DNA of 64,000 nt from Antedon mediterranea (lineage: Eukaryota; Echinodermata; Crinoidea; Comatulida; Antedonidae), in NCBI RefSeq assembly GCF_964355755.1, contig NC_092676.1, positions 26,208,288-26,272,287 of the forward strand. Reading direction: 5' to 3'. The first letter of the stretch is position 1. Every line of letters starts with the position of its first letter. The translations under genes were made by a program, and so were the position numbers. The notes under the pieces are model-generated. The model saw only the letters and a program-made list of their open reading frames with translations, had not been told where the DNA came from and did no database searches. Positions 1,643 through 4,600 of the stretch are shown in pieces.

Positions 1643-4600
1643 TTATCTGTTACCTTGTGAACGATCTTTGCGCGGTCTAATGATGCCTTCTCTTGATGGG
1701 GGCCGTGTGGACACCAGCTTGACTCCAGCACGTACAGAGATGCTACCCTGGATTCGGCACTGTTCATCGTAAACATGGCCCGTTAAAACATGTACAGCGT
1801 GTTAAGGACAACTTTTTTTTCAATTTTACATTATTGATAGACAAAATTGTAAACATTTTACATATATTGATATAGTCAAGTTCTTCCCTATGTCAAAAAA
1901 GTGCCTTCTGGTTTGAGGTCACAGGTCAAAGATGAATTTTAGAAATTTTACTATTATAAATATTCATAAAACACAATGTTTACACTTTATGATTTGCACA
2001 TGAAAATACACAGGTAACTGAACAAAATTGTTAAAAATATTCAGATGTAATGACCATTCAAAGGATATCTGCAGTAACTGGGAGAAAAAGTGTATCAACC
2101 TCTGATGAAATCTCCACATGATGACCTATTGACCCTTGACCACTACCACCTTTGACCCCTACTGCCATGGCATAAAGTTCAAGTTGTAAAGTTACGTTCA
2201 TTCCAGCAGCAACCTTTAATATAAGAAATAATCAATTAGTGACATGAGTAAATCAGTACGTGATTCTGTCAGTGAATGAAGTAGTCATTAAATCAGTGTA
2301 AAAGGAATCAGTCAGAAAATCAATCAGTAAATCAGTCAGCAAATCTGTGTAAGGAATCAATCAGGAAATCAATCAATAAATTAGTCAGAAAATCAATCAA
2401 TCAATAAATCAGTCAGCAAATCAACCAATCAATAATCAGTCAGCAAATCAACCAGTCAATAAATTAATCAGTAAATCAATCAATCAATAAATCAATCAGC
2501 AAATCGATCAATCAATAATTCAATCAGCAAATCAATATCGATCAATCAGTAATCAGTCAACAAATTAACTAATCAATAAATCAGTCAGCAAATCAATCAA
2601 TAAATCAATCAGCAAATCGATCAATCAATAAAGCAATCAGCAAATCATTCAATCAGTAATCAGTCAGCAAATCAACCAATCAATAAATCAATAAATAAAT
2701 CAGTCAGCAAATCAATCAATCAGTAATTTAGTGAAGCAGTCATTAAATAATTTGAAGAGAAATCAGTCAGAAAATAGTCAGTAAATCAGTCCACGATTCA
2801 GTCAGTAAGTATGGTAGTGAATCAATCCAAAAAAACAATAAAAAGTAAAGTACCGGTCCTGACTTGAAAATGACATTCAACCCAGTAGATGGTGGTGGTT
2901 GTTTAACTTTGAATCGACAGCTGTCAAGTCCAATGTTCTTCAACAGCACATTAAACGTGTATGTACAGCCTTCCCGCACAACGCCAAAGTTAACTTGCCC
3001 AGGGTACAGCTCAAAGCCTCGGATCTTGTTAAGATCACCAACACCTTTCATCTTAGCACCAGCAATCGATGAGTTAAATGTTTTGTTACGTACTGGGTCT
3101 TCTATCTCTTGAAACTAAGATAAAATAACAGTTACTTAGGTCGATTGCAATGTAAAGACCTAGACTAAAGACTGTACATGATGACCCATACCGGTAATCC
3201 TACTATTAGTATGAGCAAAAACCGAACAACCTCATAACAATAAAGGACTTCTACATTAAATTGCCTTAATTCTACTACTGTGGAAATTATTAAGTCTAAG
3301 ATAGAAACTATTATACATTATATATGGAATATTTTTTAATATATTTCATACGCATCCAACAGTGAGTAACTCGCCAATTACAGGATGGATAAACTGATTT
3401 TATTTTGTTTATAAACTAAGTCTCATTTGAGGCTTAGGGAGTGGAGGTGGACAACCCTGGCACTATGTCAGGATTGAACCCCTTGGGATTGGAAGGAAAG
3501 CATGTTAACCACCAAGATACAGCTCCACAAGGTGCTTTATAAATCCAGGATATCATTATACCTTTTGGTTAGGCAAGGCACCAGGCTTCTGCCCTAATAT
3601 GGAACTTGGGAGGGTCACACTTTCTTTCCTGGGGTCACCATTGACATCAACAACCAGACTTCTGGTTAACACAAGGTCCTCTCTAGCTGATGGAAAATCC
3701 TCTGTCACTTTGTACTCTTCAGTATTGGTGGTTCCATGTGATATGGCTGGTACTAAACATTGAGAAACATATTCATAAGTTGATATAGGTAGAAAATGTT
3801 GTGTGTCAGTGATTCTATGTTCCCCTGCTATTTAGTAGGCCCCTATTGATAAAAATACCACAATAATGGGACTGCAAGTGTAGTTTACCTCACTCTGTAT
3901 CAATCTGGCTTAACTACCCACCATTTTATATATTTTTTTAATGTCATTTTAACTAAATTGCTAACTTTGTTTATAAATTATTCTTGTGTTAACGTTTGAG
4001 CAAGAGCAGTTTAAATTCTGTTCATATATATTCACATATATTGCTTGCTCCTGGCAAGATTATGCTTGATGATAACATAACAAATTTAAAATCAAATTTA
4101 TACATACCAGCTGGATCTTGGTCTTCTTCACTATGTTCCGGGATTGCGGAAGCATACAGCTGATTTGATGTGCGACTAGAGGGCGTTTCACTCGTCATGC
4201 CCTGGTTACCCACTGGTGTTGGGTTTCCTTAAATGAATATAATATTTTATTCCAATAATGGTTTAATAATAATTATAATACCTGTAATAACTAATTTACG
4301 GTTATAATGATACAGAAATAATAATACATATAGGTTAACTTAATTAAAAAATAATCTCTCAAGAAATATATAAGTTCCTCAGAGGATATGAAATGTACTA
4401 CAAAACAGGCAATATCTGTATAATAATATACTACGATCTTACAGATGGATTATAAATGATAATTACAAGTTTTTTGTCGGGTTTTTAATATAAAATAGAA
4501 GATAATTTCATATTATTGAATCCAAAAAATGTTATTATGATAATGACAATGGTAATGTCAATTATAATTAAGATGATGATACCAACTTAGATAATAGTAT

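What the first reader, a model, noticed from the sequence alone, without database searches (positions are those of the whole stretch)
1792..2068. AT-AC (U12) last intron in SPAG17 reveals the real C-terminus
Standard GT-AG reasoning ends the protein at TGA 2058. An ATATCCTTTG donor, a GTCCTTAAC branch site and an AC acceptor about ten bases later instead join a 49-codon terminal exon, and the junction [12 protein letters not shown] aligns with the vertebrate C-terminus. Automatic annotation is likely to truncate this gene.
Basis: partly seen in the sequence, partly recalled or inferred. Interest (0 to 1): 0.75.

Follow-up and report, generated by a model that had tools for sequence, protein, structure and literature searches.

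The report
Minor-class last intron in SPAG17
The last intron of a sperm-tail and cilia gene (SPAG17) in this animal is almost certainly of the rare AT-AC kind that a second, minor splicing machine removes; this is a textbook example, useful for correct gene annotation but ordinary biology.

Summary
On the minus strand a SPAG17 exon (2213-2069) runs into CAG|ATATCCTTTG, a 9/9 minor-class donor. The 277-nt phase-1 intron (2068-1792) ends with GTCCTTAAC (8/9 branch site), then AC ten bases after the branch A. The joined frame reads [12 protein letters not shown] plus 40 residues to TAA (1645-1643). Mouse SPAG17 (PDB 9ijj) aligns across the junction ([13 protein letters not shown] / PVEATVLTSSNYD) and ends 33 residues after the aligned block; ours ends 36 after it. 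No usable GT donor lies near the exon end, no other AC gives a homologous frame, and only here in 64 kb do both motifs occur at this strength. The genome holds U11, U12, U4atac, U6atac and CENATAC genes. A second AT-AC candidate lies in TRAPPC10 in the same window. No transcript could be checked. Whether vertebrate SPAG17 has a minor intron at this codon, and whether existing annotation truncates the gene, could not be tested. New member of a known kind; interest low to moderate.

The parts
2069..2213 (-). SPAG17 penultimate coding exon (VAAGMNVTL...LFLPVTA + first base of D)
   Evidence: Open frame matching mouse SPAG17 from residue 2227 on; flanked upstream by a normal GT-AG intron, donor 2853, acceptor ending 2214
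2060..2068 (-). U12-type 5' splice site ATATCCTTT
   Evidence: 9/9 consensus
1792..2068 (-). AT-AC U12-type intron, 277 nt, phase 1, GC 27%
1801..1809 (-). U12-type branch site GTCCTTAAC (8/9 to TTCCTTAAC), branch A 1802
   Evidence: the only motif within 2 mismatches in the intron
1792..1793 (-). AC 3' splice site, 10 nt after branch A, no polypyrimidine tract
   Evidence: the only AC in range that keeps the homologous frame
1643..1791 (-). terminal coding exon, 48 whole codons plus split codon, stop TAA 1645-1643, GC 50%
   Evidence: aligns to mouse SPAG17 ..VLTSSNYD..
1077..1176 (-). candidate poly(A) signals AATAAA (starting 1176 and 1082), ATTAAA (starting 1159)
   Evidence: position only
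2058..2060 (-). read-through TGA used if the intron is retained (..VTADIL*)

Best explanation
Window 2068-1792 (minus strand) is a minor-class (U12-type) AT-AC spliceosomal intron, apparently the last intron of the SPAG17 gene. U11 and then U6atac pair with ATATCCTTT, U12 pairs with TCCTTAAC and bulges the branch A, and the minor spliceosome joins 2069 to 1791. This completes codon GAT (D) and adds a 48-residue tail after the C-terminal PapD-like domain. If the intron is retained, translation ends at TGA 2058 in ..VTADIL*: the PapD-like domain stays intact and only the tail is lost. Shown: the motifs, the frame, the homology across the junction and the presence of minor snRNA genes. Inferred: actual splicing, and that this is the last intron.
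For: Motifs at exact positions and unique as a pair in 64 kb. Mouse SPAG17 aligns across the junction, [17 protein letters not shown] / PVEATVLTSSNYDNRPK, within an E 3.3e-47 match. The other ACs near the branch give unrelated or immediately stopped frames. There is no credible GT donor near the exon end: the best within 60 nt scores 3.3 but would delete conserved residues, and the nearest, CCAGTTACT, scores -0.6. GC is 44% exon, 27% intron, 50% terminal exon, 30% after the stop. U6atac (137 bits), U12 (126), U11 (89) and U4atac (98) genes are present, with intact donor- and branch-pairing stretches AAGGAGAG, GTAAGGAAAA and AAAAAGGG. CENATAC/CCDC84 is present. Phase 1 fits the minor-intron bias (PMC10639083). 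A second AT-AC candidate intron lies in TRAPPC10 in the same window.
Against: No RNA evidence was available. The similarity beyond the junction is short: 5 of 12 residues identical, and the 13-residue score ranks second of 8,317 downstream positions; the first-ranked lies in AT-rich sequence directly after an in-frame stop. A strict genome-wide AT-AC pattern gave no clear excess over its reversed control (3 vs 2; 0 vs 0). No retrocopy was found to prove the junction.
Confidence: 0.94

Rival explanations
1. No intron here: the gene simply ends at TGA 2058 and the downstream frame is chance.
For: Read-through gives ..VTADIL*, which coincidentally mimics ..VTADVL and keeps the PapD-like domain complete.
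Against: The mouse protein continues for 33 residues past the aligned block; a perfect U12 donor, branch site and AC all line up with the frame; terminal-exon GC is that of an exon.
Confidence: 0.03
2. The exon is joined by a conventional GT-AG intron using another donor or acceptor.
For: Some GT and AG sites exist; the best acceptor-like site, at 1888, scores 7.2 (coordinate corrected by 9,319).
Against: Donors with positive scores lie inside the conserved PapD-like exon or after the TGA; every GT-AG combination scored loses conserved residues or gives an unrelated tail.
Confidence: 0.015
3. The AT-AC intron is real but is not the last one: the AAG|GTAACA at 1653 is a further donor and the C-terminus lies in a later exon.
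For: The donor-like site scores 6.5, as good as this gene's own donors at 3.2-8.3; the tail residues after YD show no clear similarity to the mouse tail.
Against: Tail length to TAA, 36 residues, is close to the mouse 33; GC falls to 30% right after the stop; poly(A) signals follow 0.5 kb on.
Confidence: 0.1

Closest known systems
U12-type AT-AC introns (catalogued in U12DB, IAOD, MIDB)
   Same: Donor ATATCCTTT, branch site one mismatch from TTCCTTRAC, AC ten bases on, phase 1, no polypyrimidine tract, minor snRNAs in the genome
   Different: Nothing qualitative. It sits at the 3' end of a long gene, whereas conserved U12 introns are concentrated in 5' portions of genes (abstract of PMC2426677).
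SPAG17 / Chlamydomonas PF6, C1a central-apparatus protein
   Same: C-terminal segment matches mouse SPAG17 2107-2287 with a PapD-like domain
   Different: Final 40 residues diverged from mouse
SPAG16 U12/U2 twintron of vertebrates (PMC3564746)
   Same: Another sperm-axoneme gene with a U12-type intron
   Different: Unrelated gene; there the U12-type intron shares its place with a U2-type one, and no U2 alternative fits here

Membership tests
U12-type AT-AC intron | 5' splice site ATATCCTT(T) | tested here: met
   9/9 at 2068-2060
U12-type AT-AC intron | Branch site TTCCTTRAC close to the 3' splice site | tested here: met
   GTCCTTAAC, 8/9, branch A 10 nt from intron end
U12-type AT-AC intron | AC 3' terminus giving an in-frame, homologous product | tested here: met
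   AC ending 1792; alternatives fail; mouse alignment across the junction
U12-type AT-AC intron | Organism has a minor spliceosome (U11, U12, U4atac, U6atac) | tested here: met
   All four above Rfam gathering scores; CENATAC
U12-type AT-AC intron | Spliced in RNA, dependent on the minor spliceosome | not testable with these tools
   No transcript data
U12-type AT-AC intron | Position conserved as a minor intron in other species | not testable with these tools
   No other animal genome held; no paper in the library names SPAG17 together with minor introns; supplementary tables not searched
SPAG17 | Sequence similarity to a known SPAG17 including the C-terminal domain | tested here: met
   E 3.3e-47 to 9ijj_x; PF14874 PapD-like 1.1e-11

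The most novel reading that the evidence does not exclude
Because it appears to be the last intron, its retention would place the stop in the final exon and so escape the usual exon-junction trigger for nonsense-mediated decay. A stable isoform ending ..VTADIL could then be made with the whole PapD-like domain but without the tail, so that minor-spliceosome activity would set the SPAG17 C-terminus and perhaps C1a assembly in cilia.
Probability: 0.07. Interest if true: 0.5.

Novelty: new member of a known kind. Interest (0 to 1): 0.2.

Why it matters
It corrects the predicted C-terminus of a central-apparatus protein and shows where GT-AG-only gene prediction would fail. It adds a motile-cilium gene to those whose expression depends on the minor spliceosome, which fits the reported link between minor-splicing defects and cilia (PMC13216214), but it changes no principle.

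Tried and rejected
A retrocopy carrying the spliced junction: none in the genome. A genome-wide pattern test for AT-AC introns: too strict, no clear excess over the reversed control. Published mention of a SPAG17 minor intron: none found in open full text. The mouse tail read out by X-padded queries shows no clear similarity beyond YD. The best-scoring alternative downstream peptide, at -1105 relative to the window start (TVIVYSELPNGPK), was rejected as chance because it directly follows an in-frame stop in AT-rich sequence. A search for COX1 to name the organism found no mitochondrial sequence. In one search the printed window coordinates derived from L014 are shifted by 9,319 (two records were concatenated by my script); scores stand and coordinates were redone. 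A structure prediction was not run, since a spliced protein is not letter-for-letter in the DNA and would not be accepted.

Full report
What was checked. The minus strand of 2213-1643 was read directly and recomputed. The SPAG17 exon 2213-2069 reads [48 protein letters not shown] plus one base. The next bases are ATATCCTTTG. Without splicing the frame gives D-I-L-stop (TGA 2060-2058). Removing 2068-1792 (277 nt, phase 1) completes D and joins a frame of 48 more codons to TAA 1645-1643: [49 protein letters not shown]. All coordinates in the finding are right.

Is it the right splice? Three AC dinucleotides other than the one at 1792 lie near the branch site; each gives an unrelated or immediately stopped peptide, while AC 1792, ten bases after the branch A, continues the homologous frame. 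The intron holds only one motif within two mismatches of TTCCTTAAC. U2-type donors were scored within 60 nt upstream and 70 nt downstream of the exon end: none would keep the conserved domain and reach the tail. Joined GT-AG products were listed and all lose conserved residues or end in unrelated sequence (coordinates in that call are shifted; see tried and rejected).

Homology. phmmer against PDB sequences finds one protein, mouse SPAG17 in the sperm central apparatus (9ijj, PMC12297659). The last 288 predicted residues match with E 3.3e-47 over mouse 2107-2287, and the last two exons alone match with E 3.8e-11. The alignment runs without a gap across the junction: [20 protein letters not shown] against LFLPVEATVLTSSNYDNRPK. 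Mouse has 33 residues left after this block, the present protein 36. The residues after YD are not clearly similar (mouse NRPKNLPQGKENPMVFRTSTISSSS..). Pfam finds a PapD-like domain (PF14874, 1.1e-11) ending just before the junction, so the intron separates the domain from a short tail.

Chance. The donor word occurs five times in the window, 1.34 expected, and branch-plus-AC twice, 0.9 expected, so neither alone is remarkable. Paired at high score within 2 kb they occur once, here. Peptide similarity of the terminal exon by itself ranks second among 8,317 downstream positions; it is the conjunction of donor, branch site, AC, frame, composition and homology that makes the case.

Machinery. The same genome (354 Mb, 18 contigs) holds U6atac, U12, U11 (two loci) and U4atac above the Rfam cut-offs (alignments). 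The parts that pair with introns are intact: U6atac AAGGAGAG and U11 AAAAAGGG against the donor, U12 GTAAGGAAAA against the branch site. CENATAC (CCDC84), reported as a minor-spliceosome component (PMC8280824, abstract) and, to my knowledge, needed above all for AT-AN introns, is encoded on C8.

A second example in the window. In a TRAPPC10 gene (PF23036, 3.1e-46), also on the minus strand, AA|ATATCCTTTTAT at 60633 and TCCCTTAAC with AC ending 60518 bound a 116-nt intron that joins NTNK-YMKSCAILASEEE in frame. No solved homologue was available to test that junction.

Literature. AT-AC introns make up about 26% of human minor introns, and minor introns avoid phase 0 (PMC10639083). No open paper found discusses SPAG17 with minor introns, but supplementary gene lists were not searched, so a listing in U12DB, IAOD or MIDB is quite possible. 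SPAG16, another axonemal gene, is listed as a U12/U2 twintron (PMC3564746). SPAG17 with DPY30 forms the head of the C1a projection, and Spag17-KO mice lose C1a (PMC12297659).

What is not shown. No RNA was seen. Conservation of the intron class in other animals could not be tested because no other animal genome is held. A donor-like site (AAG|GTAACA, 1653) leaves about a one-in-ten chance that one more exon follows. The claim of automatic truncation was not tested, though PMC5716242 reports such errors for non-canonical sites in a plant genome.

Verdict. A real, well-formed minor-class intron, correctly spotted and read; a new member of a well-known kind.

Noticed in passing
window 60633-60518, minus strand: Second AT-AC U12-type intron candidate, 116 nt, phase 2, in a TRAPPC10 gene: ATATCCTTTTAT .. 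TCCCTTAAC .. AC, in-frame junction NTNK/YMKSCAILASEEE.
   Followed up: partly
window 7156-7148, minus strand: A perfect ATATCCTTT donor word inside a SPAG17 coding exon (reads D-I-L-L); a possible decoy, no high-scoring branch site within 2 kb.
   Followed up: no
window ~2280-2820: Degenerate AATCAATCAGTCAGC-type tandem repeat fills much of the SPAG17 intron just upstream of the exon at 2213.
   Followed up: no
window 5160-5280 and 1305-1440: Copies of a repeat with inverted ends (AAGCTCTGTCTACACTA.. / ..TAGTGTAGACAGAGCTT), a probable MITE, recurring along the window.
   Followed up: no
G000 C5:11057853 and C8:13519935: Two distinct U11 snRNA gene copies, both above the Rfam cut-off.
   Followed up: no
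window 26302-41137, plus strand: Two near-duplicate amine-oxidase-like gene segments ([57 protein letters not shown] occurs near 29.5 kb and 39.6 kb).
   Followed up: no
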